Source: Diplocarpon mali (lineage: Eukaryota; Ascomycota; Leotiomycetes; Helotiales; Drepanopezizaceae). From it: a DNA stretch of 64,000 nt. Shown here one piece after another: positions 6,441 to 53,937 of the stretch; positions within the stretch are counted from its first letter, which is position 1; each line of letters begins with the position of its first letter. Location of the stretch: the NCBI GenBank assembly GCA_024741835.1, contig JAENRP010000076.1, positions 1 to 64,000 on the forward strand, written 5' to 3'. The position numbers and the translations under genes were made by a program. The notes below the pieces were generated by a model. The model saw only the letters and a list, made by a program, of their open reading frames with translations, did not search any database and was not told the DNA's origin.

Positions 6441-7400
6441 TTATAACTCCTCCGACCTCTCCTCCTTCGCGCTTAAGGAGACAAGCTCTAACTCCGTTCT
6501 AAAGCTGGAGCTCGCCTTCCGAATACGCCCCTGCCTGGAACGACCCCGACCTCCTCCTCTTGCCGCCGCTAGCGCTGCCCTATTGGCTGCTACGCCTAAT
6601 GCTACCCTCGCTACTGCGAGCCCCCTTCCCTTTATAAGAGACTCTGCTACTACGGCGGTCCGCTCTACTAACGCAGCGATAGACCCTAAGAGGCCTAGCA
6701 TAGTTCGGCTGGATTGCTTTAACCTCGCTAGCTAGGACTCAATAAAGTCGCCGCGCTCCTATTAGAAAGTTAGCGGTCGATTTGATACTAATTTAGGTTT
6801 AACTTATAGCAACCGTCGCCCAGATCCCCTTTAGCTAGCTTACTATAGCCTTAGCTATAGAGCGGAGCTCCGCAAGGCTAGTACGCTCTAGTTGGGAGCG
6901 GCTAGTTAGAGCCTTTGCGCTGGCCACTAGCAGGAGGTTGACGAGAATCCGGGCGCGCCGGACCGCCTTCTAATAGAGCATCTTGCAGTTCCTTGCTAAA
7001 ACCGCCTAAGCGTTATCGTCATTATCATCGCTGCCGTTATCCTCCTCTTGCTACTAAGCAGCCTCCTCCTGCCACTCCTTAAGGGCCGCGGATAGCGCTG
7101 CGAACTCCTTACCGATATAAGAGGGAAGCTATAAACAAGTATTAGCGCAACTAGAACTTTAGACTTAATTCGGGGTACTTATAGGGATGCACTCTGCCTT
7201 TTGCTCCTAGCACTAGTAGCACTTCTTACTACGCTCCGATTCGAACTCGCATTTATATATAATATCGCGTACGAGGCGCCGCACGCACTAATAGCAGCAT
7301 ATACAGTAGGCCACCGCGAGGGCGCCTAACAGCAAGGGAATTGGCACTACGCGTATTAGACGCGATTCGACCTTAGACTAGGGCAAACTTACTTATAGTA
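6441..7400 (-). pseudogene. Antisense cysteine-rich ORF of gypsy F, function unknown
   Basis: Opposite to pol, between the chromodomain and the 3' LTR, one minus-strand frame from about 7385 down to 6742 is broken only by TAG/TAA (likely former CAG/CAA). A TGA at 6741-6739 and a frame change lead into an open 86-codon stretch (6701-6441) rich in Ala and Arg. At 7305-7189 it has C-x2-C-x11-C-x-F-E-x6-C-x2-C-x6-C, a likely zinc-binding module, followed by helix-prone charged and Ala/Leu-rich sequence. The GC content is visibly higher than in pol. Elements C and D carry the same cysteine pattern in the same place and orientation. It loosely recalls fungal cysteine-rich families such as DUF3716, but I cannot confirm that. 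The protein is not recognised. Confidence 0.6.
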
Positions 7401-7437
7401 GTTAGTAGTAGTAGTAGTAATTATTTCTACTACTATA
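7397..7437. repeat. TAG/TAC-rich microsatellite
   Basis: Short run of tagtag units followed by tactac units in the 3' untranslated part of gypsy F. It could form a small hairpin. Confidence 0.5.
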
Positions 7438-7675
7438 CATTAGCCCTACGCTATAGTAGTAGGAGTAGGGGACCTATGCGATAGTATATAGTTGTTATAT
7501 TAAGGAAGGAAGATCCTATAAGGGGAAAAACAAATTTGAGTATATAATGCGACTTACGCTAAATTAAATATAGAACGGTACCGTTTATATAATAATGCGC
7601 TAAGTATATTACTATACGAAAATCGTTATAACCTCTTAACACTTATAGGCAAGCGTTCTTAAAGGGGGAGGGTAG

Positions 7676-7981
7676 TATAATAGCTATACCTCCACTTAGT
7701 GCAATTACCTAGGAGTACGGCGTTTTAAGGTTTCGCAATCTCGATTCAATATAGGGTTTTCTTAAATCGACCCTGAAGGGGCAAAAGGATATTCTTACGT
7801 AATATTATATAAACAGGCAATAGAGCTTCTAGCTGCTATATATATAAGGAAGAAGGGCTCTCTCCTAAGGAGGGTTCTCTAACTTCTTCGTTTCCTTCGT
7901 ATTAGACCTATAGAATACGCCTTTGCACCACTTCTTGCTCCTATACTTGATCTCGCACTTCGGCGGTTCTGTGTCGTTACA
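7676..7981 (+). repeat. 3' LTR of gypsy F
   Basis: 306 bp pairing with 420-725. Preceded by a purine-rich run (aaagggggaggg) that fits a polypurine tract. The start, tataatag, is the RIP form of TGTAACGG. Ends GTTACA. Confidence 0.9.
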
Positions 7982-9828
7982 ATATGCTTCGATTTAATTG
8001 AAAATTTTCGTTCTTTAGTAAGAGATCTCGCTCCTTTGTTATCGAGCTATAAATAAGGTAATCGATCGAGTTATATATTAAGGTCGGCGAATAGCTTTAG
8101 TATCTAAGCTACCTCTCTTGAGCCGTCGGAAGCCGCTATTATCTCGGCTTGTTCACTACTTAAAGAAGTAGATTTTTGCCTATTCGCAGCCTAGCTAACA
8201 ACTCCTCTATTATACTTAATAAGCCAGCCTTAGAATAACTTCCTATTGTTCTCGATAGCCTAAGTGGCATCTGTATAAGCGTCGAATTGATTTAATTCGC
8301 CTTTTCCATATATAATTCCATCTTCGGCAGTCTTTTATAAGTATCGCAAGAGGGGTTTCGTAGCTTAAAGGTGATCTTATAAAGGGGTTGCCATATACTA
8401 TACCAATTGGCTGATAATATAGGAGATATCTAGCCTTATAAGGTTCAAGGGGTATATAACGCTTCCTATAATCTGCTAGTAAAGTGAGATATCTTCAAGT
8501 TATAATAGCTTATTAGTATAAGCTTTATCTATACCTAATTTCCTTAATACTATACCAGCTAAGGCTAGTAGGTTATTCCCTTTGCAATTAGCTATCTTAA
8601 ATCTATTAAGAATCTTCTTAATATAGTCTATTTAGTGAATTTGTAATATTCTAGCCTTGCGGTCTTATTCAACTTATATTCTAATAAAGGTGCTAATTAG
8701 CCTTAGGTCTTTTCCTTTTTAAGTATTAAGAATCTTCTTTTTAAAGTAATCGTAATCTTATTATTTTCCGATAATTAGTATATTATCTATAAAGACTAAT
8801 ATATACGCAGTTGTATTATTAGCTTGATTTTCCTATATAAATAGATTTGGATCTACTTTAGCGCTTTATAGGCCAGCCTTCTCCATTTCATCTTTGACTA
8901 GTAGCCACTATTCTTGAGGTACTTATTTTAAGCTATATAATAACCTTAGAAGCTTAATATAGGCTTGTTTTCCTCGAAGTTAAGGGTATAATTCGTAGAA
9001 TAGGTCGCATTCGTCGTCTAGTAGTGCTATATATACGTCTTTAGCTAAGTACGCGTTTAAAAAGGCTATATCGATATCGATTTGCTCGATTTCTAGGTCT
9101 CTTAAGGCTGCAAAGGCGAGTAGAACTTGTAAAGTTATATACCTAATAACGCTAGCAAAAGTATTAAAGTAATCTACCTTATACTATTACTTATAGCCTT
9201 TTAATACAATTCGAGCCTTCCTTCTTACTAATACTCTATTTACAATCTTATTTCGCAGAACTAATCTCGATTTTATCAGCTTTCTTTTAATAAGAGGTTT
9301 ACCTAATATTATTTTAAAAGTTCCTACTAATTTTACAGCTTCGAATTCACTAAGTATTGCTTCTCTTTATTCTTTTAGATTCTAACTTAGCGCATTATAT
9401 ACTAATATTACCTCTATAGGAACAGTTGGTTGATTTCCTATAAAGGTCAACGCACTCTCTTATGTATTAATCTCGCCAAATACTCGTTTTAGCTTCAGCT
9501 TCCTACCATACCGTAAGGTAGGAGTCTCTATTTGCTTTAGAACGCGTTGATCAGACGCTTTAGGAATGTTTTCTATTACCCTTTAAGGTTTAATACCTCT
9601 TACTTTAGCTTTATTGCTAATCTGCCTGTTTTCTAACAACTCTAATGTTGCAGGTCTTTCAGTACCATATACTCTCTCAGTTTCATATACTAGCCTCTCT
9701 ATAACTCTTATAAAAGGTCTTTCAGTAATATCTACTAGCCTTATAGGTCTTATTAAGCTCATAGCACTATATGCTAGCCTCTTATTCTAAGGTCTTTCCT
9801 GCAGTTGTACTTCTCTTATATTATATAT
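7982..9828 (-). pseudogene. Copia A reverse transcriptase and RNase H N-terminal part
   Basis: On the minus strand this is Ty1/copia RT. The catalytic region reads Y-I-L-V-F-I-D-N-I-L-I near 8770-8805, with the second catalytic Asp changed to Asn. RNase H follows and stops at the gypsy F junction just before I-D-I-R. Upstream it is cut by copia B at 9829. No intact frame remains. Confidence 0.8.
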
Positions 9829-10024
9829 TGTTGAGATGGGTGATATAGCTATCACTCCGATGTATTATCATATGACCCTATTGCTTAGTCAGTAGGATAT
9901 TAATATGTATATAGCTATAGGGAAGAAAAGGGGTAACTTTCCTTCCTTAACTCTTACTAATATATCGACTATCGACCTTTAGAAGTTTCTTATACTTATT
10001 ACGCCGACTTACTTAAGCTTAATA
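9829..10024 (+). repeat. 5' LTR of copia B
   Basis: Begins TGTTGAGATGGGTG, the least mutated start among the four copies of this LTR (9829, 18300, 24095, 29394). The others read tattaagatagg. Ends cttaata, the RIP form of CTCAACA. Confidence 0.9.
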
Positions 10025-10040
10025 GGTTATAAGCCTTAGA
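10025..10040 (+). other. Primer binding site of copia B (half-tRNA iMet type)
   Basis: Directly after the LTR lies ggttataagcc. With one RIP change reversed this is GGTTATGAGCC, complementary to the anticodon region of initiator tRNA-Met. Copia elements that prime with a 5' half-tRNA use this site. Confidence 0.6.
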
Positions 10041-10145
10041 TAGACTGATAATAGATTATTAACTTCCCTTAGAAAGCACTTGCGCTGCAACTATTAGTAG
10101 GAAGTTGAACGAGACTTATAGTAAAAGGCGAGCAATTGGCGAATA

Positions 10146-10275
10146 AGAGGTATGATTCCCTATTTAGCTAACCTATATTGCAAGAGGTATGATTCCTTGC
10201 TCTATAACCCTTTGGTACTATAAGAGGTATGATTCCTTGCTTTATTATGTTTTATAAGAGGTATGATTCCCTGCG
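10146..10275 (+). repeat. Leader repeats of copia B, four copies of gaggtatgattcc
   Basis: The untranslated leader holds four copies of a unit containing aggtatgattcc followed by (c/t)tgc, spaced about 25-45 bp. Each contains an ATG. The same array is in B' (18617-18745). Likely a structural or regulatory leader; the role is unknown. Confidence 0.7.
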
Positions 10276-10448
10276 TTATAGCTTAAAAACCCTTTTCGAT
10301 AAGAGGACTTCCTCTCTATTTAATACTTCTATAATACCTACTATTTAATCATTTCGACTTTTCAATAGGAGGAGTGCCTTTAACTATTTAATTTATTTGA
10401 TTTTAAACGCAATTCTATTCGAAACGGCAATAGCTTCCGATTCCGACC

Positions 10449-10646
10449 TATCGTGCAGAATGGGCGGAGTCTCCACTTATTCTGGAGACCCTCCACGTGA
10501 CTCCTGCTAAGTCATAGACTCTCCCTTTTCTTTCCGAAGTCTCTTGACCAGATATACACTAGATAATAATACAATTAATCATCTTCTCCTATATTAGCGA
10601 GCCTCCTAAGCGACCTAATGAAGGCCCTCCAGCCGACCGTACTATA
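10449..10646 (+). repeat. 5' LTR of copia C
   Basis: 198 bp, nearly identical to 17824-18021. The next bases, gttataagccc, fit GTTATGAGCCC, again an initiator-tRNA-Met anticodon-loop primer site. Confidence 0.9.
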
Positions 10647-10789
10647 GTTATAAGCCCTATGAGCACTTTAATATGCTTTCTCTTCGCATACAACCGGCTG
10701 AAGGGCCCTTTAAGCTCTTAACCGACTTTTCGAATACTTATAATAACTCGAAGGACCTTTATTTTTAATTAATAAATCTCCATTTTCCG

Positions 10790-13700
10790 ATCGAACCTCA
10801 TTTGCAAACCTCATTTATATACCTAACCTTTTTCATCAGACTCTATTTAAAATATCTAACTCTTTGAGCATCTCTGAGCCTTACCTTAATACCTTTGCCT
10901 TTTAAGTAAAGTGGTTTAGTAAATATATATTCTTCGCTAAGCTCTATAATATCACTATTTTTGCCGATCCGAGACTCCTATTTAAGTCAATTATAGAGAC
11001 TAAGCCTTAAGCTCCTTCTGTATAGGAGCTTAAGGAACTGGAAACGGCTAACCTTTGCGTAGTATACGCGAGGTCGTGTGAAGAGTATGCGGCGACTCTA
11101 TTCGAATAGATTTACGCCTGCTTTCCCTTAGGAGATCTGTTAAAGGCTCCTCCTCTATAGGCTTCTTATAAGGATATTAAGGATGAATATAAAATCCTAA
11201 TAAAGGAGCACTACCTGCGCAAGGAAACTTAAAAGACCTAACGCAAATACTATAAGCTACTCTTAGAATAGGTCTTTAAGACCGTCGATAGAACGCTCTT
11301 AGCTTCCGCGATAGCTTAAGTATAAATCCAAGCTAAGAAGCTCTCCTTCTTAATACCTGATAGAGACACTCCTATAAGTAGAACCACTGCTAATAACCCG
11401 TATGCTAATTTGGTCAACTAGCAACTCTTACTCTAAGGCCTAGTATCTATTTTAAAGTGTGATATTGCGCCTTTTAATAAGGCTATTTAGTCTTAGACGA
11501 GGCTTTAATACTGCGATATACTACGCTAAGGTAAAACTGGGAGAACTAATACTTAGCAGTAGATCTGGGAGTAGCAGGAGGCGTACCGCCTAGTAGAGTA
11601 ATACAGTCTTCCTAAGATTAAAGGGAGACTAGGAGTTACTGACTTTTTAGACTCAGTTGTAGTAAAGATCAATCCGAGTTGGGCGATTTGCCTAAAGGAG
11701 GAAATTATCACTGATAAGCAGATGGGAACCCTATGTAAGTACGACCTAATACAGCTGAGCCGCGCCTTGGCAGGCATTGAATCTAATAGAGCGATCGATA
11801 ATAAAGGGCTAGCAGTTTTTGCTACTCGAGAGTCTCTCCTAGATGCCGAAACCCCTTCGCAGGCTCTAGCGAGCAGCTCCCGAAATCGCTCCATAAGCTC
11901 TAAGAGGGAGATCAGGCCTAAGTGCCCTTATAAAGGCTTTAAAAATCACTATTAGAAGCCCTAGGACTATTGGAAACTGTTGTATGCTATGGACGGGCGT
12001 AAGGAAAATATGAAGGTTCTCCCCTTGCGAGAGGAGGTCCTACAAATACGAAAGGCTTTAAACGCAAGAGACTAGTTTAAGGGTCTCTAAGCATAGCTTA
12101 AGGAGAATGATATTGCGGTAATAGCGATTGACAAATTCAAGGGAAAGGCTTCAGCCTTTAAGAAGGACGGTTTAGGCAGCAAAAGGGAGAACTCACCAGT
12201 CTTTATAGTAATAGATCCCTCTGCCTTCGACGCTTTTAAAGAATCGTTCAACGTTTACTACCTCTCTAAGCTAGAACGCTACCCGCTCTCTTTGAGTACG
12301 CTCTTTAACAATTGCGTAGCCACTTATATCATTAATTCAAAGGATTTACTTATCGCAGGCACCTTTAAGCCTTCTGGCGACTTATAGCAATATGTTGAAG
12401 CAGGTACCTTAAGACTCCTAATCATTAGGAGAGGTAATAGATATATAGCGGACTCTCTTTTATAGCGTGATGGCTCTCCTATAGGGATGACGCTTTGCAA
12501 CGTTGCTATTATAAAGGAGTTTACTACTAATATTATCTCGGAGAGGCTCCTCGCAGACAAGGGTTTTTGGTACTCTGGGGTAGACCTTACTTTGCGCTTT
12601 AGGAGCATTGAAGACTCTGTAAAGCAAGCTTAGTTAGAGCGTTGCTATAATCTCATTTTCTTTAAATATAAGCCTATTAACTATTTAGATCTTTTAAATA
12701 TACTTTAATATGACTTCTCTGCCTTAATGGCGTTTCTTATAGCTGAGACGACGCTTTATAATAGGTTCTAGTCTAGCTATGCACCTATTAAGGTGTAGGA
12801 CGATGACGCGTACACTTGGTACCTTTGCGCTGGCCACCTAGGCGCAGAGGCTCTCTAAGCGCTAGTCAAGTGCGCTAAGGGAGTGAAGATCAGGGGAATA
12901 CAAAGGCTAGAGTGCCTTGCATGCGCAGTAGCGTCTGCTAGGCAAGTTATTTCTTGCGCTACCTTTAAGAACCGATCTCTAAGGCCCTTCTTTAGGATCT
13001 CCTAGGATCTCTTTGACTTTTTAGATAACTTGTATAATAGTTGCTTATAGGTTCTTTTAATTAAGGACGAGTATAGCGGTATGCTTTGGATATTCCTATT
13101 AAGATCGAAGGGCGGAGATGTAGTTATAGAGGTCCTCTAGGCCTTTAAAGCATAAGTGAAATGCCAATATAGGCTTTCTATTTGTAAGATTAGGCAAGAT
13201 AATGATACTTTAGTGATCTCCTTAAGAGAAGACTCCCTTACGGAGTACTAGAGATGGGTAAAAGAGGAGGGAATCGATTTGGAGCTTACTCCCGCTTATA
13301 TACACTAATCCAATAGAGGCGCGGAGCGAGTAGGAAGGGAGTTAATTAAACGCTTTATTAAAATGAGGATCTACGCTAGGCTTCTAGCGAGCCTTTGGCC
13401 GGAGGTTGTAGAGGCTGCTATATACCTTTATAATATCTCCCTACTCATTAGGAAGAAGATGATCTTATTAAGCGAGGCTCTCTACAGTTGGTTTAAGTAG
13501 TATTTTCGATTTTACGAGCCGCTGCTTATTAAGCAGATAATAGCGAGCTTAAAGCCTGACTAGAGTCGCGTTTATGCATATAGCGCTTGCGCATACCCTT
13601 TAATTAGGGAGAGGGAGGCGGGGAGGGACCGCCGAACCTTTAAAATTAAACTATAAGGGCACTTAAGTTACTTAGTTAGATATATTACCTCTAATGTTTA

Positions 13701-16370
13701 TAGAATCTGGGTTCCTATGCTCTAGTAAGTAATAACGACTTGTAATATCGAATTCGACGAGTCTTTCTTCTATAGTCCAAAAGCTAAGCGCGCAAACCCT
13801 ATATCGCGCTAGGAACTTAAGACGACCCTCTAATTGATTAGAGAGGGAGAGGGAGCTTAGGATACTGAGTTTAAAGGCATTTTTGAGGAATCGGAGCTTA
13901 TCGCAGGGCTGAACGCAATCGCTGCAGAAGAAGCCGCTGTATAGGAAGAGCCTGTATCATAGACCGACGCTGCTCCATAGCCTTTAACTAATGATATAGA
14001 AGGCCTTAACTTAAATCCAAATTCTCCGAGAGACCCGCTTAGAAACTCAGGGGTGGAAGCAAGCGAACTGGAAGCTACTTCGCCAGTCTTTAAGAAGGCA
14101 AATAGCAACTAAAGCTCAGGGGTGATGATTCCCTACAGAGGCCCTACTGAAGAAGGAACTATAGATAACTCTAAGGGAGTCTCTAGAGACGAGTTCTATA
14201 GGGCGATCAGCAGATCTTTAGCCGCCATTCTGCGTAGGAATGGAGAAGGCTTAAGGGCTCTAAGACAGAGTCTTTAGTTATAAAGGCAGGCCTTAGTGAA
14301 CTCTAGTAGAAGGCTAGAAGCACTGCCGCTAAGATCTAGGAGGAGCTCTAACAGTCTTATAAGAAGCGACCTGGTAAGAGGAGTAGGCCCTAATAATATA
14401 ATACCTTAAGTTATAATACTAGCTCAGAGACTATAGGCTTAGGAGATAGAGCTACCTAGACTCCTAAAGGAACCTCTAGCAATAATAAAAATAGAGGAGG
14501 AGACTTATAAAGAAAAGCGCAAGGAGGAACTCCCTCTTCTTAGGCAAAAGAGGATAAGACGCTTAAGCGTTAAGCAATAGGAGACTTTAAAAGTGTACGC
14601 TACTGCTTTAGAGTATATGCTCTCTTAAAGCAATAGTGATTTACCCTGCTCCTTATATATATAGGAGTTTGTATCGACCTTTTAGGCGAACGAATAGATA
14701 AGGGAGGATAGGAAGGACCATTTGACGGTTTATGCAGTTGTTAAAGCTGCAGTTGATAGTCAGGCAAAGGACGGAGCGCAGTCTCCCAACCGCTTATAGC
14801 ACTAAGGCTCTCTGCTAAAGCCTTCAAAAGGATGGCTAGACCTAGAGAAGCACCCTTTTAGCAAACGATTTAAGGAAAGAGAGCGCTAAGAGATTAGGAA
14901 TTTGGAATCTTAGAGTTGCTAGAGAATCGTACAAAGGGATTACTCAAAGCCCTTGCTAATACTATTGAAATGGGTTTTTACCTATAAGGTCAATAGCTCT
15001 GGCGAGCTTCTGAAGTGCCGATTACGGCTAATTGTGCAAGGGGATCTTTAAGATGAAGCTTTAATTTTCTTAACCTACGCAGCTACGCTTATAGCAAGGT
15101 CTTTTAAAATACTAATAGCGCTTGCCGCGTACTTTGATATGGAAGTAAAGCAGTTCGACGTCGTTAACGCGTTTGTCAACGCTCCTAGAGACCTAAGGAG
15201 TGCTCCAGTTACGTGCTTCTTACTAGATGGCTTTAAGCGCCCTAGTATAGTAGTAGAACTGGACCGCGCGCTCTACAGGCTGAAAGACTCTCTGGCGCTA
15301 TAGTATAGGAACTTCGCAGGAACGCTCAAGGGCCTTCAACTCGAGCTACTAGGTGAGGAGCCTTGTATTTTCATAATAAAGGATCGCATAGTCTTTGTAG
15401 CGTTTTACGTTAACGATATTCAAGTGTTATATAAGGCCTCTAACCTAGATCGGGCGACTCGTCTAATTGAAGACCTAAAGAGGGCGTATAAGCTTACTAT
15501 TATAGGAGATATCTCTTAGTTCTTTAGAGTAAGGATTATTTGGGATAAGAAGGCAAAGAGGATCTCCTTAGTTTATAATACCTATATTAAGAAGATCGCT
15601 CAAAAGTTCGGAGCTGATATAGGGAGAGTGCTTAATACTCTACTACCAAAGAAGGAGTTTGTCAAGAACTTAAGGCAAGCTTCCTTAGAAAAGGTAAAGG
15701 AGTATTAAGAAAAAATAGGCTCTATTCTCTATATAGCGATTATAATACGCCCAGACGTTGCGTTCGCAGCCTTCTAACTGTCTTTCTTCTTAACTAATCT
15801 AAGCTCTAAGCACCTCTTAGCCGCGGACTGGACGCTTCAATACTTATACGGCACGCGCTTCTTAAGAATTACCTATAGCTTTAAGGCTAGGGAATACCAA
15901 TTGGTCGCGTCTTTAAATGCTTCTTTCGGAGATGACCGAGAGACCTATAGATCCTCCTAAGGATACGTCTTCTTCCTATTTAAAGGACTGATTATTTGGA
16001 AAGCGAATCGCTAAGCGACTGTCACGCTCTCCTCTATTAAAGCAGAACTCTATGGCATAGTTTCTACTGCGAAGGAGATAATGGCTATAAAACGCCTCTT
16101 TAAGGAGATTCGCATAGACTCCCTCTTTAAATGGAATATATATTGCGATAACTAATAGACGATTCGGCTAATTGTTATAGAGAACGAGAAGATTAAGATA
16201 AGCCTTTGATATATTGAAATCAGCAATATGTGGATCCGCTAGGAGTACTAGAAAGGAAGCTTTTAGATAATCTACCTCTCTACTAGGGAGATGTACGCAG
16301 ATGGGCTTATTAAGAACCTGAACCGCTAGAAGTTTAAGAGCTTCGTTCGTTTATTGAACCTCTAAAGCTT
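10790..16370 (+). pseudogene. Copia C gag-pol, RIP-degraded
   Basis: The gag region is about 10.8-12.2 kb and the start is unclear. An integrase zinc region (A-G-H-L-G-A-E-A-L ... C-L-A-C) lies near 12820-12930. The integrase core with Y-S-G-M-L-W-I-F-L-L continues to about 13500. RT starts near 14960 (K-W-V-F-T-Y-K-V), with K-Q-F-D-V-V-N-A-F-V-N-A at 15150-15185 and F-Y-V-N-D-I at 15400-15420, where the second Asp is Asn. RNase H (K-A-E-L-Y-G-I-V-S-T-A-K-E) lies near 16040 and runs to about 16370. Several open stretches of 75-135 codons survive, but TAG/TAA codons interrupt all domains. Confidence 0.85.
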
Positions 16371-16569
16371 TTAAATAATCGTTTAATAACTCGCACTTGC
16401 TAGCAAGTAGTCACTTATTACTAAGAGACTTGTACTTACGAGCTCCTACTCTTTTACAATCACGTTTATTTGTTTTCTCTTGCAAAGCGCACTATAGAAG
16501 CTTCTCCTTTTTTAAAAATATAAGAATAGGTAACGTTCCTAAGCTGCTATTGCAGGGCGCGACCCTTCT

Positions 16570-17480
16570 TTAGATCCTCCTAGCTAGGGCTAGGAGCTGA
16601 GAAGCCATAGCTATAAGCTCCGCACGGATCTCCTCCCGAGAGAGGCCTAGAGGCACTCCCTCGGCCAAAGGCCCGCTGGCGAACACACTAGCGACGGCAG
16701 GGGCGAAGGCAGGGGGTGCGGCAGGGGCGGCGGCGAAGGCGGGAGCGGCGACGGCAAGGGCCGGGGAGACGAAGGGAGATACAAAGGGGTCAGCGGCGGC
16801 AGCGGCAGGGATAGGAGTGGCGGCGGCGGCGAGCAGGGGAAACGGGGCGGCGAAGGATAGGCTGGCGGCAAACGCGAATAGGATGCTAGGAGCAGGGGAA
16901 GCAGCAGCACTACCACTCGCGGGAGTGGCAGGCCCTCCTAGCACCAGGGTCCGATCGCTCCTATCTTTTAAAAATCAGCCTAGAACTTAATAAGACTCGA
17001 TAAGACGTACTATAGAAGCTCTAAAGCGCACCCTTTACTGCATTTAGCAGTGGCGCTACCTCCTCCTTAGAGGCGCCGCAGGCGCGGGCCGATACAACAG
17101 CCTCCTAGGAGGCAAGGAGAGGTCCGCTGGCCTACTAGCAGCTATTGCTTAGCACTATATAACGAACGCAACGCGCACCGAAGGTGCTATTAAAGCATTG
17201 ACAATCGAGATTGCTAGTACTCCTGCGTGCGATGCAACGCACGCACGCGTTATCGCACTCTATTGTAGGCTTAGGCATACGGCGCGCAGTAGGGGTAGGG
17301 CTCTTAGGTGGCAGCGGCGGCGGCAGGGGCGGCGGCGGCGGCAGGGACGGTAGCAGCGGCTTATTACCCAGCAGGCGCTAGGAGGACCGGGACAGGGTTC
17401 CAGCTCCCGCAAGAGCGCTAGCGACCTAGCGCAAAGTCAGTACAACACAGGGTATAAGGACTCTAAGGGTCTTACTTTGC
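16570..17480 (-). pseudogene. Antisense cysteine-rich, Ala-rich ORF of copia C
   Basis: Minus-strand frame opposite to pol. From about 17480 it reads through a Leu/Pro-rich stretch to an in-frame ATG at 17278. Then come C-x2-C-x10-C-x-C-F-N-x6-C-x2-[C/Y]-x6-C (17246-17140, fifth Cys now Tyr) and Gln/Ala-rich sequence broken only by TAG. A possible 46-50-bp GT..AG intron (donor GTACGT on minus near 17012) joins this to a 124-codon open frame (16944-16570), very Ala/Pro-rich, ending R-E-E-I-R-A-E-L-I-A-M-A-S-Q-L. Base composition is far more GC-rich than the flanking pol. The cysteine pattern matches the antisense ORFs of F and D. No known function assigned. Confidence 0.6.
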
Positions 17481-17823
17481 AAGGGCGGCCGGGGCTACAA
17501 CGAGCAGGAGTTCCTTCTATATTTAAAAATTATTAATATAAAGATGATATTTTTAAATAACGAAGGAGGGTTGTTTTTAAAGAAGGGAAGGAAAACCTCT
17601 GCAATGGAAATACTCTATAGGAAGCCTAATGGAGCACTAGCGTAGAATCGCGAAGATTCCTAAGCGTGCTTATTACCTATAGCGACCCTTCTCATTCTAG
17701 AAGGAATAACCTCTAAAGGGGCGGCATATGAGATAGAGCCTCTTTTCTTTATAACTGCTATTCTTTCTTTTATTTTATCTATATAGCTAAGCGATTCTGG
17801 GAGCATCGCCTAACTAGGGGGTA

Positions 17824-18021
17824 TGTCGTATAGAATGGGCGGAGTCTCCACTTATTTTAAAGACCCTCCACGTGACTCCTGCTAAGTCATAGACTCTCCC
17901 TTTTCTTTCCGAAGTCTCCTGACCAGATATATACTAGATAATAATACAATCAATCATCTTCTCCTACATCAGCGAGCCTCCTGAGCGACCCAATGAAGGC
18001 CCTCCAGCCGACCGCACCACA
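17824..18021 (+). repeat. 3' LTR of copia C
   Basis: 198 bp pairing with 10449-10646. Ends ACCACA, followed by the CAACC target copy. Confidence 0.9.
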
Positions 18022-18299
18022 CAACCGAAATACCAGGCCTAGAGACCTCTAACTCTTTTAAAAGAACTGGCAATGATAGTTCGACGATTTAGAGCTTTAC
18101 TTTAAGAGTAAAGGCATTGAAATAGCGATTTAAAAGATACTTATTAAATACGCGAGAATAGCCCCTTATACTCCCTCTACTAATTCGTCTACTTCTACTT
18201 TAATAGCTAATATAACTACTAAGGATTTGCCAAATATACTAAATAAGCTTAGCCTAAGAGCCTTAGTAGATAATAACTAAGAATCCTAAAGGCAGATTT
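18022..18299 (+). pseudogene. Copia B gag, N-terminal piece
   Basis: Matches 18920-19196 of B' almost base for base. Encodes the Gag start with W-F-x-D-L-E-L-Y-F-K-S-K-G-I. It stops in the middle of cagattttaaa where B' is inserted and resumes at 24290 with gattttaaata. Confidence 0.88.
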
Positions 18300-18494
18300 T
18301 ATTAAGATAGGTGATACAGCTATCACTCTGATATATTATTATATAACCCTACTGCTTAGTCAGTAGGATATTGATACGTATATAGCTATAGGAAAGAAAG
18401 GGGTAACCTTCCTTCCTTAACTCTTACTAATATATCGACCATCAACCTTTAGAAGTTTCTATTACCTACTATGCCGACTTACTTAAGCTTAATA
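18300..18494 (+). repeat. 5' LTR of copia B'
   Basis: 195 bp. Start tattaagatagg is the RIP form of TGTTGAGATGGG; end cttaata is the RIP form of CTCAACA. The following ggttataagccc (18495-18506) is the initiator-tRNA-Met-type primer site. Confidence 0.9.
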
Positions 18495-18616
18495 GGTTAT
18501 AAGCCCTAGATAGACCGATAATAGATTATTAACTTCCCTTAGAAAGCACTTGCGCTGCAACTATTAGTAAGAAGTTGAATAAGACTTATAGTAAGAGGCG
18601 AGCAATCGGCGAATAG

Positions 18617-18745
18617 GAGGTATGATTCCCTATTCAGCCAACCTGTATTATAAGAGGTATGATTCCTTGCTCTATAACCCCTTTAGTACTATAAGAGGTA
18701 TGATTCCTTACTTTACTATATTATATAAAAGGTATGATTCCCTGC
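18617..18745 (+). repeat. Leader repeats of copia B'
   Basis: Four copies of (g/a)aggtatgattcc, equivalent to 10146-10275 in B. The 65-codon open frame over this array (18622-18819) is a repeat-derived artefact rather than a likely gene. Confidence 0.7.
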
Positions 18746-18900
18746 GTTATAACCTAAAAACCCTTTTTAATAAGAGGACTTCCTCCCTATTTAATACTTC
18801 TATAACACCTGCTATTTAATCATTTCGACTTTTCGATAGGAGGAGTGCCTTTAACTATTTAATTTATTTGATTTTAAACGCAATTCTATTCGAAATAGCA

Positions 18901-21900
18901 ATGGCTTTCGATTCCGATCGAAACACTAGGCCTAGAGACCTCTAACTCTTTCGAAAGAACTAGCAATAATGGTTCAACGATTTAGAGCTTTACTTTAAGA
19001 GTAAAGGCATTAAAATAGCGATTTAAAAGACACTTATTAAATACGCGAGAATAGCCCCCTATACTCCTTCTACCGATTCGTCTACTTCTACTTTAATAGC
19101 TAATACAATTGCTAAGGATTTGCCAGATATATTAAATAAGCTTAGCTTAAGAGCTTTAATAGATAATAATCGAGAATCCTAAAGGCAGATTTTAAATGTA
19201 AAAAAGGAAAAGGAGTATAAGCTAGCCTTAATCAAATGCAAGCTTAAGATCAATAGAGGTTTAAGCGACAAAGATTAAGATTTTGTTCGAATTTATAATA
19301 ATGCAAAGATAAGATAGGATACTTTAAAGGCAAAATACTCTTAGATAACTGCCTTTAATACCTAGCATCTACTATAATAAATCACTTTATTTTAGTATAG
19401 AAAAGATAAAGATAGTAAGGATATAGATATAAATATAGACTCTACTTAGTCTATATTATATAAAGTAAGGAGGAGAATAAGAGCCGCAGATCCTAGGATA
19501 GCTATGACTTTTAAGGAAACTCAGCTTTTTGGTTTCCTATTTAATAGCCTCCCTCTTAAGTTTGCTATTGCAAAACAATCTCTTCTCGTTTAACCTAACC
19601 TTAAGATCTATAAGAAGATCGACCTCTTTCGAACTATCGAGCAAGACCTCGAAGGATACTCTAAATCGGCAAATACTGCGTTATAGGGCAAAGACAAGCC
19701 TAAGAAGAGGAAGGAGCGCGAGATAAGCCCTTGAGCTTATTGGAGATGCTACTTTTATAATAGTGCTTATAATATTACTAATTGTGAAGTTAGAAGGCAA
19801 CTGATCGATATAGTCGCTAGCTTTAATATTAAGAAGCAATCGAAGCAGAAGTTAAGAAGCAAACTGCCCTTATCCCGCCGAAGGCTGTAACTATTAAAGA
19901 AAGGCAAAGGAAAAGGCTATTTAGCCAGAACTTTAGCAGATACCTTTAATAATAATAGTAGGTTATCTAAACCTAAATCTACTTTTAATAATTTAGATAA
20001 TAATTATGATAAAGATGCTTACATCTTAAAAGCCGATCTTTATAAGATCCTTAAATCCGACTGGTATAGTGATACTAGTTGTATAGCATATATGATTAAT
20101 AAACCCTACCTATTTAAAGGCCCGCTTACCAAAATAAAAAGGCGCTCTATTAAGGTTAGTAGTAGAAGGTTATATGCGGACTTAATAGGTATAGTAGAGA
20201 TAAATATTGCTAGCGTTTCTTTCCTTTTGCAAAATATTCTCCTTATACTTAGCTTAAGCATTAATCTCTTATCTAGCTGCAAGATCTATGCGGAGTTGAA
20301 TTATATAAGAGTTTTCAATAATCAATTTATATAGTTTATAAATAACAACTATAAAGTGATCTTTAAGGCTAAAATCAAAGATAGACTTTATATTATCTTA
20401 AAGGTGATATTATAGAAATTGACTCCTAGGCCGGACCTATAAGTGGGTTCCTTTAAAGAAAGTGCACTCTCTGCCCTAATACAATTAAGCGAGGATAAGG
20501 AGAATAGATGGACTCTTAAGCTAGGATTGCGAGTAAAATTCGCGAAAATGACTCTTAAGCCAGGACTATAGGTAGATTATAAGGTGTCTTTAAAGATGAC
20601 TCTTAAGCTGGGATCATAAGTGAATTTAGTAGAAATAACTCCTAGGCTAGGACTGCGAGTGGATTCTGCAAATTTTAGGAAATCGACTCTTAAGCTAGGA
20701 CCGCGAGTGGATCTTGCGGTTTTATTAAAAACGACTCCTAAGCTAGGCTCTTAACTGAAAAACGGCAAAACCTCGAACTGCTATTACTAGTCCTTTCCAA
20801 CCGCCGATAATAAAGTATTGACTAATAATAGGCTACTAAAGCTATTAGAAGCCGAAAGCCTATTAAAGTATTAGCTAATATATAAAAGATTCGCGCATTT
20901 AAGACTAGAGAAATTAAAGGGCCTGCATAAGGTCTTGACCTTAAAACAGAAGATCTAAGTACTAAAGGATCGCCTAGTATGCCGAATTTGCAAGCTAATA
21001 AAACTTCGAAATCAGACGCGAACTAAGCTTAGTTTATAGAAAGATTCGATACTAGCGCTAATATCCATCGACACTATTAGACTATTTACAACCTTAATTA
21101 AAGGAAATAATTGGTTTTCTTAAATAGTAGATAACTCCACTTAGTAGATATAGACTATTTGCGCTAGGACCAAATCTAAGCTTATAGAAAAGCTGGAAAC
21201 TTAGAAAGTGATAAAGGAATGCTAGACCTAATTAAAGCTAATAGCTATTAGGTCTAATAACGCATTAAAGATTAGGGTAAAGCTTAATGAATAGGCAAAA
21301 CAAGGAGTTTGTTATAAACTAACTATAATATACAAAGGTTCCTACTAGAATAGCATTGCTAAGCGAAGCATCTAGTAAGTAAAGACTAACTATTGCGCTC
21401 TATTATAAGATGCTAACTTACTATTAGAATTCTAGGACCTTGCGATTAAGGCAGATATATACTTATGAAATAGAATAGGTAGTAGGCCAATAGTTAATAG
21501 TACTTGAATATCGCTATATAAGGCATATTTTAGATAGAAACCAAGCCTAGACTATATCTGCGTCTTTAGAAGCGTCTACTACTCCTATATTAGTCCGAAG
21601 TCCTAGCCCGCAGGTATAAAGAGTAAGAAGCTAATGGACTAAGGTAGAGAGTATATATTTATTAAGTATATTAAATAGATAATAAAGTAATAGATAGTAT
21701 ATACGCTAGACCTAGGGCGAGTAATTATATCCTTAGTAGTTGAGTTTAATAAATCTCGAAATAGGAGGGAGCTATCCTTAAAGCTTTGTATATCTAAAGA
21801 TTCGCAAGGTATACTACTCGATAGTAATACTATTAAGCCGAACTAATAACCCCTCTTTCTAAGCTTAGGTATATTAAGCGCACCCGCTGATCGACAACCT

Positions 21901-23855
21901 ACTAGTCGCCTAAAGGCCGAATAGACTATTCCTATCGTCTGCGAACTGCTTAAAGTATAGAACAACTTCGATATTATTATCCCTTTAGTTAAAGCACCTA
22001 CGGTAAAGGATGTTCTTAAAATAGGTATAAGTAATAATAAGCCTCTACTACTAGAAAGCGGTTCCTTAAATAATAAGCCTATAGAACCTATAGCCGAACC
22101 TACGTCTTTAAAAAGGAATAGAGACTTAGAACTAGAAGATACCTTAGACGAACGCAAGTCTAAGCGTATCTAGGCTATAATAGCATATAGGATCTATAAG
22201 CTCAAACTTCAATAGAGCTTTAATAAAGATAATGCGTTCTTAACTACTAAGGAGATAATGAAAATCTCTCTTTTAAAGACGTATAATAAAGCTATTAATA
22301 ATCTAAAGAATAGAGTAATATAGAATAAGGCAATCTAAGAGGAGATAAGCTCTCTTATTGCAAATAGCATATAGATAGAGGAACCGACGCCAAAGGACGT
22401 GAACCTAGTATTAATGAAGTGGGTCTTTATAATTAAAATATATGCAGATAGAACTCTAGAGCGTTATAAGGCAAGGCTTATAGCTAAGGGCTTCTCTTAA
22501 TAGTATAAAGAAGACTACTTTAATACGTTTGCGCTAATAGTTTGTATAAATACCCTTTGTATATTTATAGTAATAGTAGCTGCTAAGGACCTTAAATGCA
22601 AATAGTACGATATTAAAAATGCATTTACCAAAGCGACTATAAAGGAACGGATTTTTCTCTCCCAACCTAATAGTATTCCTATATGCGCTAGCCATTCTCT
22701 TTATATACTCCGCAGTATCTATAGGCTCAAACAATCAGCCTATAATTAGAACCTCTTATATAGCTCTGCTCTAATAGAAATAGGATTCGTTTAGAGCCTA
22801 GCTGACCCTTATCTATTTACTTATACTAAGCGTAGAATCAAGTTGCTACTATATATCGACGATATTGCTATAGCTGCGAAAACAACTACTCAATTAGATT
22901 GGTTCTTTATAATAATTCGGAAACGTTTTAATACTAAGGATCTAGAGGGAATTTATAAGATCCTTAGCATCTGCATTATAAGGAACCGCTCTACTTAAGA
23001 ACTCTAGTTGAATCAAGAGCAGTATATTAAGAAGATCCTAGACCGAATAGGACTCTCTACTTATACTCCTAACTTTAAGCTAAAGCATACTCCAATTAAA
23101 GGAAAGTATAATAAGTTAAAGCCTACTAATGAAAATGAGCAGAAAGGAGATCTAAAGAAGTACTAATAGGATATTAGAGTGATTATATATGCTATAGTAT
23201 ATATAAGACCAGATATCGCCTTTATTATTAAGTAACTTAGTCAGAACCTAAAGGATCTGACGATTTAATATAAGAATGCAATTAAGCGACTTAAAAGGTA
23301 CCTTCGATCGATAATCATATAAAAGGTAAGATACAGACTAACGAAATATATAAGCGCAAAGCTTAAGGTATATACTAATTCCAATTAGGCAAATATAAAA
23401 GGTCGGAAAAGTATATTTAAAAGCGTAGTAGTACTATATAGCAGACCTATATTATAAGAAAGTAAGAAGTAGAAATCAGTGGCTACTGCAAGCACTAAGG
23501 CCGAATATATATTGATATTGTTAAATTGCAAGCAAGGATTATAGATCGCCTAAGTTCTAAAAGATATAGGTTTCGCTAAGTATATTAGACGAAATAGGAA
23601 CTATATTAATCTTTAAGCAGATAATATAGGAGCGATTGCACTTATAAAGAATCCACACTTGTATAAGCGATCGAAATATATTAATATTACCTACTACTTT
23701 ATCCGCGACCTTATTATAAAGAATAAGTTGTCAATTACCTATATCCTAACCAATCGAATAGTAGTAGATGGATTTACAAAGCTACTAGAGATAGTTGTAA
23801 AGTTCGAAGCGTTTAAAGATATACTAAGGTTGTAGAAGACAGTAGGGGCTTAGTA
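18901..23855 (+). pseudogene. Copia B' gag-pol, RIP-degraded
   Basis: Start ATG at 18901 (M-A-F-D-S-D-R-N). Gag includes W-F-N-D-L-E-L-Y-F-K-S-K and a knuckle-like C-x2-[C/Y]-x3-[H/Y]-x4-C near 19748-19790. A palindrome array follows at 20421-20757. Integrase begins near 20880 (R-F-A-H-L-R-L-E-K-L, C-R-I-C) and continues to about 21700. RT begins near 22417 (K-W-V-F-I-I-K) and has an intact-looking catalytic Y-I-D-D-I-A-I-A at 22852-22875. RNase H (K-A-E-Y-I ... T-K-L-L) spans about 23490-23800. Numerous TAG/TAA codons make it inactive. The RT motif is better kept than in the other elements. Confidence 0.88.
20421..20757 (+). repeat. Array of seven palindromic ~25-bp repeats in copia B' polyprotein
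   Basis: Copies at 20421, 20511, 20550, 20598, 20638, 20685 and 20732 follow gactc(c/t)(t)aggc(c/t)-(g)gacc-(g/t)(c/a)gagtg. The two arms are near reverse complements. In the polyprotein frame each copy reads T-L-K-L-G-P-R-V or close. Spacing is irregular (39-90 bp), so this is not a simple tandem duplication. Two more copies lie after RNase H at 23866 and 23933. Confidence 0.8.
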
Positions 23856-24094
23856 GGCTTAAGGACGACTCCTAGGCCTACCCTGCGAGTTAGGTCATAT
23901 AGTCTTATAAAGGAATATCTTTTAGGAAATTTGACTCCTAGTCCTGCCCTGCGAGTAGGATTAGTGATTTCAATAGAGGTTACTATTAATTGATTGTTTT
24001 TAATTTAGAAAGATACTTAAGAGTTAGATTAGCGCAAAAGGATAGTTATTATTTTCCTAATTGCAAGTCAATCGGAGTAAGGTTTAAGTAGAGG

Positions 24095-30281: not shown

Positions 30282-30526
30282 TGTGGAGACCTGGGACAGA
30301 TAGGTCTCGTGACATATATTATATAATCGGCGTAGGATAGTAGGAGGATAAAAGGGCCATCTTCTATATATAGAGATAGCGCGTATCGCTATAGTACTGA
30401 ATATACCCTATACTTAGGACTTATTTCTAACACCTTATCTAAAAGAGCCCGCTTATAGTGCTTCCTCCTCTTGTTTTTAGGTCTTCCCTTAGGCCTATTC
30501 TTATATTATCTCCCCTTAGTTTTATA
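30282..30526 (+). repeat. 5' LTR of gypsy E
   Basis: 245 bp. The right-hand copy, rejoined across D, has the same length. Differences are mostly C/T and G/A. Confidence 0.85.
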
Positions 30527-31480
30527 TTAGTAACTTACGCAAGGACCGATTTCTTAAGATTTCCGTCCTTATACAACCTTATCGATCTCTTAGTTTGCAG
30601 ATAAGAGACCGGCCTTTGAAATACATCTTTAAAACACTTATAGCATTTTAATTAACTCTAAAACCTTATCCTTAATCGCCTAGTTACTTAGAACTATCGA
30701 TTTTCATTTAGCAACTATTAATAACCTTAGATTTTCCCTTTTCAGCTTTGCTTTAAAAACCCCTATTTTCTTCCTTAACTTTGAGATTTTCGGAATTTTC
30801 AGCTTCCTAGTATGAAAAGTTTAGCGAACCTTATAATAGCAATCCTAAATAGCAATAGTTTTAAGTACTTAAGTAATACTAAGCGCAAACTCTAACCAGA
30901 AGTGCCTCCTTAGAATCTTTAAAAATCCGAATCCGATAATTCAACCGCCTTAGCTTAATAGAACTCTAAAAATTGCCTTAGAATCGTCTCTAAAGACCCC
31001 TTTATTCTAAGGACTAATAGGAATTGGCCTAAAGATTAAGAAGAATCTTAGATATAAACTTTATCTTAGAAATTAGTCCTTAATTAAGTAAACCTTATCT
31101 TATTGCAATTAGTTGCAACACTCCTATTAGCTATTTAATACCTACTTAGAATCTCTTAGCAAACTTAGATTAAACTTTTAATAGAATCCGGAATTCTACT
31201 CTTAAGCCTGGCCTATAAGTAAGAGGATAAAAAGATATCCTTAAATAACTTAAGACTACTATCTACTTTTTCAATATTAATACTAGAAAATACTAAAAAT
31301 AATAATAATTTTAAACTTTTCACTAACCCTTTATCCGAATCCTTTTAAACTTATCCTAGTTACTTTAAGATTAACTCGGATTCTGAATATTCTTTAAGCC
31401 CTTTTGAATTTCGAAGTACTCCGCTTAGCAATCAATCTTATAATATCAAAGCTTCCCCTTTGCCTTCTATAGATTCTATC
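30527..31480 (+). other. Leader of gypsy E, no ORF
   Basis: AT-rich region between LTR and gag. One palindrome copy lies at 31197-31224 (ctcttaagcctggcctataag). No primer site could be matched to a tRNA with confidence. Confidence 0.45.
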
Positions 31481-37840: not shown

Positions 37841-38103
37841 TACATTTTCAATAAGGTCGCCTCCTTTATTATTTAAAATATAGATCTTTTAAGATCACTT
37901 TAAATTCTTACCTACTTTGACTTATTTTATATTCTTAATATTAGCCTTTAATTATAGCATTCCTATTACTTTCCTTAAATAATAAATAAAAAGTCCAATT
38001 TCCTTAATATATATATAGTAAACCTATTATAGCTTATATGCCCTTTTAATTCTTATACCCTATTGAAATCTCTTATTTATACTCCTTATCTTTTATAAGC
38101 AAT

Positions 38104-44900: not shown

Positions 44901-45451
44901 AAAAATATAAGTAAGAACTATTTAAAGATTTTGCAAACACTTGGAAAATGATTCAATAGTTAAAGCTATAGCTATATAAAGATAAGTCTTAAGCTAAGAC
45001 CAAGGGTATAGATAATAGTATTAAGGCCAATAATATAATCGATAAAGTCATTCTTCTTAAGAAATATAGTATTAAGAAACCTTAAGCAAAGACCCTAGAA
45101 ATGACTCCTAGGCCCAGCCCGCGACTCGATCTAAAGAAGGGCAAGGATAAGGAACTTATATCTGTCAAATCCCTTGCCGCATCCCCCTTAGCAGTAGGTA
45201 ACTCTCTAAAGGATAATAATAATAATAAAGATAACGATAATAATAATACTATAATATAAGTCTCTCTCCTTATTAGCAAAAGCCGTTATACTATACTAGT
45301 ATCCGCAAAGAGTATAAAAGCTCTTACTACACTAAGACCTGCCTTATTAAATACTAATAGCAATGCTATAAGAAGAAGTAGTCGTTTAGCAAAAAGAGTA
45401 TTATCTAGTAATAGTTCTCCCTATCCTTTAAAAAGAACTAAGGAAAATTAA
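41978..45451 (+). pseudogene. X2: paralogue of X1 in gypsy E
   Basis: Frame from a probable former ATG (now ATA, 41978) to TAA 45449-45451. It shares with X1 a common layout: an S-L-E-D/S-x-x-S-T-Y block, F-D-D-F-L-N-K-E-F (42241), a following S-K-G-I motif, a later E-G-x-x-K-L block, and a basic C-terminus (R-R-S-S-R-L-A-K-R and L-K-R-T-K-E-N). Palindromes at 42865 and 43051 both encode the peptide (T/I)-R-R-P-G-L-x-V in frame; others are at 44281 and 45103. RIP stop codons throughout. Function unknown. Length about 1157 codons, close to X1. Confidence 0.6.
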
Positions 45452-45559
45452 CATCTAAGTTAGTACTATTTTTAATTGTTTTTATAACTCTATAGCTTAT
45501 TTATCTATTTTGCTAGTTTCGTTTTCTAACTCCTGGGCCCGGCCTATAGGTGAAAAGTG

Positions 45560-45585
45560 NNNNNNNNNNNNNNNNNNNNNNNNNN
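45560..45585. other. Assembly gap (run of N)
   Basis: 26 undetermined bases directly after a palindrome copy (45530-45552) and before an A/C/T homopolymer-rich stretch. The true gap size is unknown. Confidence 0.95.
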
Positions 45586-45774
45586 AAAAAAAACCCCTTC
45601 TTTTTTTTTCTTTTACCTTTAATAATAATATGGCCCTAGTTTAGGCCTTTTAATATATTAGTTTTCTCGCATTTAAGGTTTGCTAGTAATTGATATACTA
45701 TTGCCTTAACCTATATTATTTTATATTCTTTATTAATAGTAGTAAGGGCTACTACTTTTGTTATTTAAGATATA

Positions 45775-45893
45775 TATAAAGACCTAGGACAGATAGGTCT
45801 CGTAATATATATTATATAATCAGCGTAAGACAGTAGGAGGATAAAAGGGCCATCTTCTATATATAGAGATAGCGCGTGTCGCTATAGTACTAA
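45775..45893 (+). repeat. 3' LTR of gypsy E, left part
   Basis: 119 bp matching 30282-30400. Interrupted by copia D at the ACTAA target. The remaining 126 bp are at 53938-54063. Confidence 0.88.
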
Positions 45894-46192
45894 TATAGGT
45901 TCTATACCGGTAATCGATATTCACGTGAATATAGTTGAGTACTTATTATTAAAAAGAATCTATTATAATATCTGTCTATCTTTATATAACTGAGATAGTA
46001 CCTTTATACCTATGAATATCCTCCCTCCTATAGTCCCTCCTAGCTGCATATAGATATCCTTCTAAGGTCCTCCGGCTAAATAGCCGTCCGAAATATATAC
46101 GAAACCCCTTATATCGCATATGGTACAGCTGTATAGGATGACCCTAGGAACGAGGGCAGCTTGCCTCTTGCATAGGAATCTGCGTACCAATA
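45894..46192 (-). repeat. 3' LTR of copia D
   Basis: 299 bp pairing with 53634-53932. In plus orientation starts tataggttctat (RIP form of TGTAGG) and ends ccaata (from CCAACA). Confidence 0.9.
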
Positions 46193-46782
46193 CCGGCAGT
46201 ACTCTCTTTTTAAAAAGACCTTTTCAACTCGCATAAGGAAGTACGCAGAATAGGTATATAAAGGAGGCAGATCGGTAGCAAATAATCAAATGGTAATAAA
46301 GAATAAAATAGTAAAGACAAATAGCTTAATAGCAAAGGCAGGTATAATAGGTAGTAAGGATAGTATATAGGAAATAGAATAGCAAAGATAAAGGCAAATA
46401 GCAAAGAGGGAAAAGAAAGGTATTTAAGTGATAGAAGCAATCTAAAGTCTTTGTTCGAGCCTTATAGTAGTGCGATTATAGTCCGGTTGCGTTCTAGTAG
46501 GTTCGAGACTCTTTATTAAAGAGTCATCTGGAGTTGTAATCCACTATGGCTATAAATTATAATAATCTGTAGAAGGGAAAAGAGGGGCCTTTAAGAAGGT
46601 ATATATATCGAGCTTCCCTCCTCCTTTGATCTCTTAACTTTAACTCCTACTTCTTGTAAGTAGGTCGATTCCCCCTCTTGCTTTTAAGTTAATTAACCCT
46701 ATAGTAGATCTTATCTTATATTATCTTATTAATACTATTATTATTATTAGTAAGTGCTCCGATTATTAGCCAACCCCCTTTA

Positions 46783-47640
46783 ATATATATATCGCTGACT
46801 TAGATAGTGCTCGAATGCAATTCAGAAGACCTACCTAAGGCGTTTCAGGTGCTTTGCGTACATTATGCGCAAGTGATATTAAGAAAGGAGGCTAGTAAGA
46901 ATAATACCAGCTATATATGCGCATTTAATACTCTCACTTTTAAGAAGTATGACTACTGCATTGCGCAGTAGGCAAAGTGCATCTTAGTAAGTGCTATCCG
47001 ATATCCTCTTACTTTAATAACCTTTAATAGATGTCTATTTTAGATACCTATCTAAGCTTGGGATAAGTATATTATCCTTTAGGATACTTAGGTTAGCAGC
47101 GATGTTAAAGCGATTTAAGAGGCGGCCCGAATCCTATCTAAAGAGACTTAGATATAAATCTCTATAGTCCTAAAGACTTGGGATGCCCTTTAGCTAGCCT
47201 AGCTAAACGAAGCTCGTGCCCTCTGCTATAGTATCGACCTTGCAAGCACTTAATAAGCTATATATGCCTTTGAATCTATCTGATATTAATAACTAACTAT
47301 TCGCAGGATCTATTGCGCGCTATCTAAGGCGGCAATACTGCCCTCGGGCGTCTTAAGACTTAAGGCGCTAAGGTGCTCGGCGCCCTCTAATGTATAAAGG
47401 GGCTATCTAGCTCGGCTGGAGGCCGTTCTCGGGCTCCCTTTAATAATGTCTGCCGCCAAAAGGGCAAGGGTAGACAAGTCCCTTCCAAGGGCTCTCTAGA
47501 GGGCAGGGATCTAGATTTTAGTGATCTAGATGAACCGAATCTAGAGGAGATCGCGGCTGCTCTTGCTTAGGTGCGAGCTTAAGAGGAGCGGGCCAACTTG
47601 GCTGCTGCTTTAGGTAGTGAGGCTTCTAGGCCTTAGGGGT
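46783..47640 (+). pseudogene. Antisense cysteine-rich ORF of copia D, function unknown
   Basis: Plus-strand frame opposite to D pol, broken almost only by TAG/TAA at likely Gln codons. At 46855-46980 it has C-x2-[C/Y]-x17-C-x-F-N-x6-[C/Y]-x2-C-x6-C. Both Tyr are TAT codons that a single TpG-to-TpA RIP change would make from TGT. The cysteine module is followed by about 200 residues of mixed helical sequence with basic clusters (S-A-A-K-R-A-R-V-D-K near 47448-47480). A Glu/Asp/Ala-rich tail (D-L-D-E-P-N-L-E-E-I-A-A-A-L) lies in a shifted frame from about 47510. GC-rich relative to pol. Not recognised as a known family by eye. Confidence 0.55.
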
Positions 47641-53932: not shown

Positions 53933-53937
53933 ACTAA

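What the first reader, a model, noticed from the sequence alone, without database searches (positions are those of the whole stretch)
6441..47640. Three unrelated LTR elements carry an antisense ORF with the same cysteine module between pol and the 3' LTR
Gypsy F (7305-7189, minus), copia C (17246-17140, minus) and copia D (46855-46980, plus) each have, opposite to pol and in the same slot, an ORF with C-x2-C-x(10-17)-C-x(1-2)-F-[N/E]-x6-C-x2-C-x6-C. The elements belong to two superfamilies and differ elsewhere. In D two Cys are Tyr (TAT), and in C one is, each explained by one RIP change from TGT. Interrupting stops are TAG/TAA, as expected from Gln codons. Shared position, orientation and spacing suggest a captured accessory gene spread among retroelements: perhaps an RNA- or DNA-binding protein, a silencing antagonist, or an antisense regulator of the host element. 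The motif is seen; the role is inference.
Basis: partly seen in the sequence, partly recalled or inferred. Interest (0 to 1): 0.88.

Follow-up and report, generated by a model that had tools for sequence, protein, structure and literature searches.

The report
Shared antisense cysteine gene in retrotransposons
Three different decayed jumping-gene families in a fungal-looking genome each carry, backwards and in the same spot, a once-functional extra gene with a similar cysteine-rich (probably zinc-binding) part, which suggests that distinct retrotransposons share a little-known accessory gene.

Summary
All are RIPped multi-copy families (128, 143 and 150 copies scored), and the LTR sits at the expected place in 29/29 F, 19/20 C and 26/29 D copies examined. 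The frames look like former genes: transversions, which RIP cannot make, fall on third codon positions of the antisense frame in 40 of 56 cases (p=6e-9) against 15 of 39 in spacer/LTR DNA. F and D modules are related by profile comparison (score 34.9; best of 190 decoys 25.8). C is not significant by profile but has F's exact spacing. DUF3716 membership is not supported. Antisense ORFs in this slot are a known kind (plant aORF-3R; Botrytis brtn); one cysteine module shared by Gypsy and Copia-type elements of a fungus appears, within what I could search, to be a new variant. The likeliest role, a nuclear zinc-binding nucleic-acid-binding protein serving its element, is inference.

The parts
422..7984 (+). 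Element F, Ty3/Gypsy, LTRs about 422-728 and 7678-7984; RT about 3499-3978, RNase H about 4174-4563, integrase core about 5179-5457
6412..7335 (-). F antisense accessory frame (coding phase best supported 7483-7006; C-terminal end uncertain); many RIP-type stops
7189..7296 (-). F cysteine module, C-x2-C-x13-F-x7-C-x2-C-x6-C register (reader: 7305-7189)
10451..18017 (+). Element C, Ty1/Copia, 192-bp LTRs 10451-10642 and 17826-18017; RVT_2 about 14959-15612
16573..17410 (-). C antisense accessory gene: Pro-rich start, module, helix, then after a frameshift the Ala/Pro-rich tail 16974-16573
17138..17245 (-). C cysteine module (no stop inside; one Cys column Tyr)
45892..53932 (-). Element D, LTR element with pol on minus, Copia-like on weak evidence; LTRs about 45892-46190 and 53634-53932
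46764..47610 (+). D antisense accessory frame; ends uncertain, phase-3 bias continues to about 47829
46855..46980 (+). D cysteine module (one stop inside; two Cys columns Tyr)

Best explanation
Each of the three families carries (or carried before RIP) an accessory protein gene of the aORF-3R kind: antisense to gag-pol, between pol and the 3' LTR, with its cysteine module about 0.4-0.7 kb from the 3' LTR, reading towards pol. The six-cysteine module probably binds zinc and nucleic acid; the rest is helical or low complexity, with basic patches in F and D. The gene was under purifying selection, so its protein was useful to the element: most likely it enters the nucleus and binds element DNA/RNA or chromatin to regulate transcription, import or integration. 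F and D share the module by descent, perhaps through exchange of 3' regions between co-resident elements; C probably does too. Shown: motif, slot, copy number, RIP, coding constraint, F-D profile similarity. Inferred: zinc binding, nuclear action, an antisense promoter in the spacer or 3' LTR, C's membership, the route of spread.
For: Motif 3 against 0 in each of 150 shuffles. LTR at the expected strand and distance in 29 of 29 F, 19 of 20 C, 26 of 29 D; pol piece in 28 of 29 F and 28 of 29 D and 16 of 20 C. Transversions by codon position: F 5/3/11, D 3/4/18, C module part 0/1/11; spacer/LTR F 4/6/4, D 4/7/9, C 2/1/2 (50); 40 of 56 at position 3, p 6e-9. F-D hhalign 34.9 against decoy maximum 25.8, 32.8 against 25.3; F HMM finds a D copy at E 2e-5, D HMM finds F copies at 0.003. 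C: same ungapped spacing as F, best F+D HMM hit is the module in 13 of 20 C loci. In plants, antisense ORFs of this slot include a nuclear protein (Grande) and a predicted DNA binder (TRP28 of Retand) (passages, 29, 68).
Against: C against F, D or F+D is within the decoys, and the best D-C local alignment misses the module. Stop counts do not single out the antisense frame in F and D; the mirror sense frame has fewer stops. F's phase bias alone is modest (p 0.024, 77; chi-square p 0.065, 50). The pol control is flat in D (6/8/9, 50). The C tail spares only second positions (20/3/14, 50). No Pfam, NCBIfam or PDB relative, so zinc and nucleic-acid binding rest on cysteine spacing alone; the fold model is unusable. 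No expression data.
Confidence: 0.5

Rival explanations
1. F and D share one antisense accessory gene, but C's is of independent origin; its cysteine pattern is convergent, as zinc modules often reuse C-x2-C...C-x2-C-x6-C.
For: C is not significant by profile; its third cysteine is placed differently (C-x-C-F).
Against: Ungapped spacing identical to F over 36 residues (2 observed, shuffle mean 0.0067); same slot and orientation; F+D HMM places the module first in 13 of 20 C loci.
Confidence: 0.3
2. The antisense transcript, not the protein, is what matters (antisense RNA or dsRNA regulation of the element), and the reading frame is incidental.
For: Antisense RNA regulation is discussed for such regions in PMC7264820 (passages).
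Against: Third-position bias of transversions in all three antisense frames and not in spacer/LTR DNA (50, 77) points to protein-level constraint; it does not exclude an extra RNA role.
Confidence: 0.07
3. A host gene family (such as DUF3716 proteins) was captured by the elements.
For: Six DUF3716 loci in the genome over the family cut-off with roughly similar cysteine spacing.
Against: Profile of 4 of the 6 host domains against F, C, D: 79, 16 and 44 of 270 decoys score as high; no DUF3716 hit in Pfam scans. Other host families could not be searched.
Confidence: 0.1
4. Chance: cysteine-like patterns picked by eye from RIPped DNA.
For: The pattern was defined post hoc; a looser pattern has many hits in the window.
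Against: 0 of 150 shuffles; F-D beats every decoy; coding constraint.
Confidence: 0.03

Closest known systems
brtn of Boty-like Ty3/Gypsy elements of Botrytis cinerea (Zhao et al. 2011, Virology 417:248; the paper itself not seen, only passages that cite it in PMC8365987, PMC7264820, PMC4227169, PMC5987419)
   [quoted passage not shown] RIP-prone host
Plant aORF-3R genes: Grande gene23, RIRE2, Retand ORF4 with TRP28, PvRetro13 (passages of PMC7264820 and PMC11963269)
   Same: Same slot and orientation; in most copies of a family; nuclear or DNA-binding proteins suspected; role unknown
   Different: Different domains (TRP28, SMC); no cysteine module mentioned in the passages seen
ORF3 types shared by LTR elements and other retroelements of bdelloid rotifers (passages of PMC5408684)
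   Same: One accessory ORF type found in very different retroelements
   Different: Different proteins (GDSL, DEDDy, CC, TM); animals
DUF3716 (PF12511) fungal proteins
   Same: Six cysteines with roughly similar spacing
   Different: No significant profile similarity; the six loci here have open frames, unlike the RIPped elements

Membership tests
aORF-3R (antisense additional ORF between pol and 3' LTR) | Frame antisense to gag-pol, between pol and 3' LTR | tested here: met
   LTR placed as expected in 29/29 F, 19/20 C, 26/29 D; pol piece 28/29 F, 28/29 D, 16/20 C
aORF-3R (antisense additional ORF between pol and 3' LTR) | Present in most or all copies of the family with protein-like conservation | tested here: inconclusive
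   Conservation shown, but copies were collected by the ORF itself; elements lacking it were not counted
aORF-3R (antisense additional ORF between pol and 3' LTR) | Transcribed antisense | not testable with these tools
   No RNA data
brtn | Sequence similarity to BRTN | not testable with these tools
   BRTN sequence not held; protein database off
DUF3716 (PF12511) | Profile score over Pfam cut-off or significant profile-profile match | tested here: not met
   No DUF3716 hit; hhalign with 4 of 6 host domains within decoys
Fungal Zn(II)2Cys6 domain | Pfam hit and C-x2-C-x6-C first half (spacing recalled, from no call) | tested here: not met
   No Pfam hit to it; first half here is C-x2-C-x10 to x17-C

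The most novel reading that the evidence does not exclude
A single antisense zinc-module gene has moved as a cassette among Ty3/Gypsy and Ty1/Copia elements of a fungus, each time settling between pol and the 3' LTR, because it gives the element an advantage against the host, for example by countering chromatin silencing or by steering integration.
Probability: 0.3. Interest if true: 0.75.

Novelty: new variant of a known kind. Interest (0 to 1): 0.56.

Why it matters
Antisense accessory genes of LTR retrotransposons are described in plants and one fungus without a known role (PMC7264820, PMC11963269, passages). A constrained cysteine module shared by element families of two superfamilies would mean that the protein does something general for such elements, and gives a definable domain to search for and to assay. 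The case also shows that coding constraint can be read from RIP-ruined repeats by counting only transversions.

Tried and rejected
Fixed-stop analysis over copies: RIP hits the same sites in most copies, so frames are not separated; the transversion test was used instead. DUF3716 and Zn2Cys6 membership: not supported; best Pfam hits for the antisense proteins were under cut-off and taken as chance (DUF2726 E 0.053 to 0.2 in D copies, zf-C3HC4_3 0.61, EGF_laminin 0.43, Di19_C 0.35, DUF6109 1.9). Structure prediction of the module (59, 67): mean pLDDT 48.8, not used, no fold search made. PDB profile search: one chance hit, E 0.32 (55). Viral-contig scan with A1: 15 pattern matches, none confirmed. 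Promoter/terminator scan of 7000-8000 (69): bacterial consensus, not meaningful here. A local HMM scan of 360 kb of held sequence showed no fourth family at E<0.01 (46). Paper searches with no result: 9, 31, 60.

Full report
Setting. The window is contig 76, bases 1-64000, of a 49.4 Mb, 676-contig genome. Most of it is low-GC repeat; GC rises from about 56 kb, and a ubiquitin-specific protease gene lies at 60145-61788. RIP is plain: between LTR pairs transitions outnumber transversions 24:1 (F), 13:0 (C) and 22:1 (D), and TpA/ApT is 1.56, 1.57 and 1.41 over the elements against 0.68 in 58500-64000. That the host is a fungus is inferred from RIP and the fungal DUF3716 family.

Anatomy. F (422-7984) has 92% identical LTRs, RT and RNase H over cut-off, and integrase core (E 8e-5, under cut-off) downstream, the Gypsy order. 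C (10451-18017) has 192-bp LTRs and RVT_2 over cut-off. D (45892-53932, minus) has LTRs of about 300 bp but no credible Pfam pol hit in the window; copy L087 gives gag_pre-integrs at E 0.0017 and rve at 0.073, both under cut-off. Copia is therefore likely for D, not shown. In each, the antisense frame begins near the 3' LTR and reads towards pol.

Motif. In 150 dinucleotide shuffles it never occurs; its shorter second half occurs 3 times against a shuffle mean of 0.02. F and C match one ungapped pattern, C-x2-C-x13-F-x7-C-x2-C-x6-C (Cys or Tyr), if F is started at 7296 (2 observed, shuffle mean 0.0067). The pattern was defined after seeing the data, so the shuffles bound chance but are no blind test.

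Copies and slot. The three frames, read with X at stops, scored 128 (F), 143 (D) and 150 (C) copies in the own genome (lower bounds, since 211, 157 and 306 candidates were seen). I examined 29 F and 29 D copies (the best-scoring after the window's own) and 20 C copies (from the top 22 of the list). The LTR is on the same strand at the expected distance in 29 of 29 F, 19 of 20 C and 26 of 29 D; the pol piece in 28 of 29 F and 28 of 29 D. For C, one search placed only 6 of 20 because the fetched stretches end inside the piece; judged by the part present, 16 of 20 are in place on the right strand, and 4 have no match, of which one stretch (L067) is too short and three (L077, L084, L085) hold 843-919 bases on that side. 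In C copy L067 the frame runs from the Pro-rich start through the module into the Ala/Pro-rich tail with one stop; in the window it is split by a frameshift near 16975.

Was it a gene? Stops alone do not decide: RIP has hit the same sites in most copies, and the mirror sense frame has a lower stop fraction in F (0.033 against 0.057) and D (0.065 against 0.082). RIP makes transitions only, so I counted transversion alleles by codon position: F 5/3/11, D 3/4/18, C module part 0/1/11. Together 40 of 56 are at third positions, p 6e-9; in spacer-plus-LTR DNA on the LTR side 15 of 39, p 0.30; the difference has p 0.001. F pol as positive control gives 5/0/12; D pol gives 6/8/9, flat, a control that failed or a wrong frame there. 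The stretches between ORF and pol give 1/2/7 in D and 4/0/5 in F, few but compatible with a longer D frame. The C tail gives 20/3/14: second positions spared, first not. F alone is modest (11 of 19, p 0.024). Along D, 13 consecutive transversion alleles at 10 sites from 46764 to 46974 fall in phase 3. Sites in one family share history, so these p-values are approximate. I take the antisense frames as genes that were under purifying selection before RIP.

One family or three? hhalign of F against D modules: score 34.9, probability 92%, E 5.8e-7; 190 overlapping decoys from other frames of the same elements reach 25.8 at most. With six cleaner rows each: 32.8 against a maximum of 25.3 over 270 decoys. 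Full-length F against D again picks the module, 61 columns at 28% identity, E 3e-5. HMMs of one find the other at E 2e-5 (D copy L039) and 0.003 (F copies L013, L035). C differs: F-C, D-C and F+D-C scores lie within the decoys, and the best D-C local alignment misses the module. For C there remain the exact spacing, the slot, the module register of the best, insignificant F-C alignment, and the F+D HMM's best hit being the module in 13 of 20 C loci at -2.5 to 4.1 bits. My judgement: F-D homology about 0.9, C membership about 0.6.

What is it? No Pfam family over cut-off, no NCBIfam hit and no PDB relative. The AlphaFold model is not usable. The cysteine spacing, basic patches in F and D (read), and plant parallels (nuclear protein of Grande, predicted DNA binding of TRP28; passages) make a zinc-binding nuclear accessory protein the likeliest reading; this is inference.

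Known or new? [quoted passage not shown] the brtn paper was not held). Accessory ORFs shared among diverse retroelements are known in rotifers (passages). Two surveys of fungal LTR elements show no mention of antisense ORFs in the terms searched. Among the listed results of searches I saw no paper on a cysteine-module antisense ORF shared by Gypsy and Copia elements; only the listed part was seen, subscription papers are mostly missing, and protein databases could not be searched, so novelty is provisional. From recall, not from any call: uncharacterised fungal proteins with similar cysteine spacing seem common in databases and may be the intact relatives.

Noticed in passing
9825-10446, 18026-19194: C sits inside an LTR-like repeat of another element: 9825-10446 matches 18296-18917 and 18026-18301 matches 18919-19194, so the broken LTR is followed directly by a second copy.
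   Followed up: partly
30287-30529: Looks like the uninterrupted form of D's target repeat: 30287-30398 matches 45780-45891 and 30396-30529 matches 53933-54066, the two flanks of D.
   Followed up: no
22405-23832 and 27642-29069 (+), 8074-9336 (-): Other Copia-like pol pieces (tblastn with C pol); after the first two, LTR-like repeats start at 23866 and 29164, leaving little room for an antisense ORF, so not every Copia element here has the slot.
   Followed up: partly
55888-55948 and 56062-56122: Perfect 61-nt inverted repeat with a 113-nt spacer.
   Followed up: no
47391-47567 (+) and 6731-6444 (-): Stop-free stretches of 59 and 96 codons in a second frame near the C-terminal ends of the D and F antisense genes; a frameshift or intron may hide the true tails.
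   Followed up: no
L048:3-101: F-type module fragment (39.8 bits with the F HMM) at the edge of a D-copy locus, i.e. F and D copies lie next to each other.
   Followed up: no
60145-61788: Open frame of 547 aa with a ubiquitin carboxyl-terminal hydrolase domain, apparently a host gene beside the repeat block.
   Followed up: no
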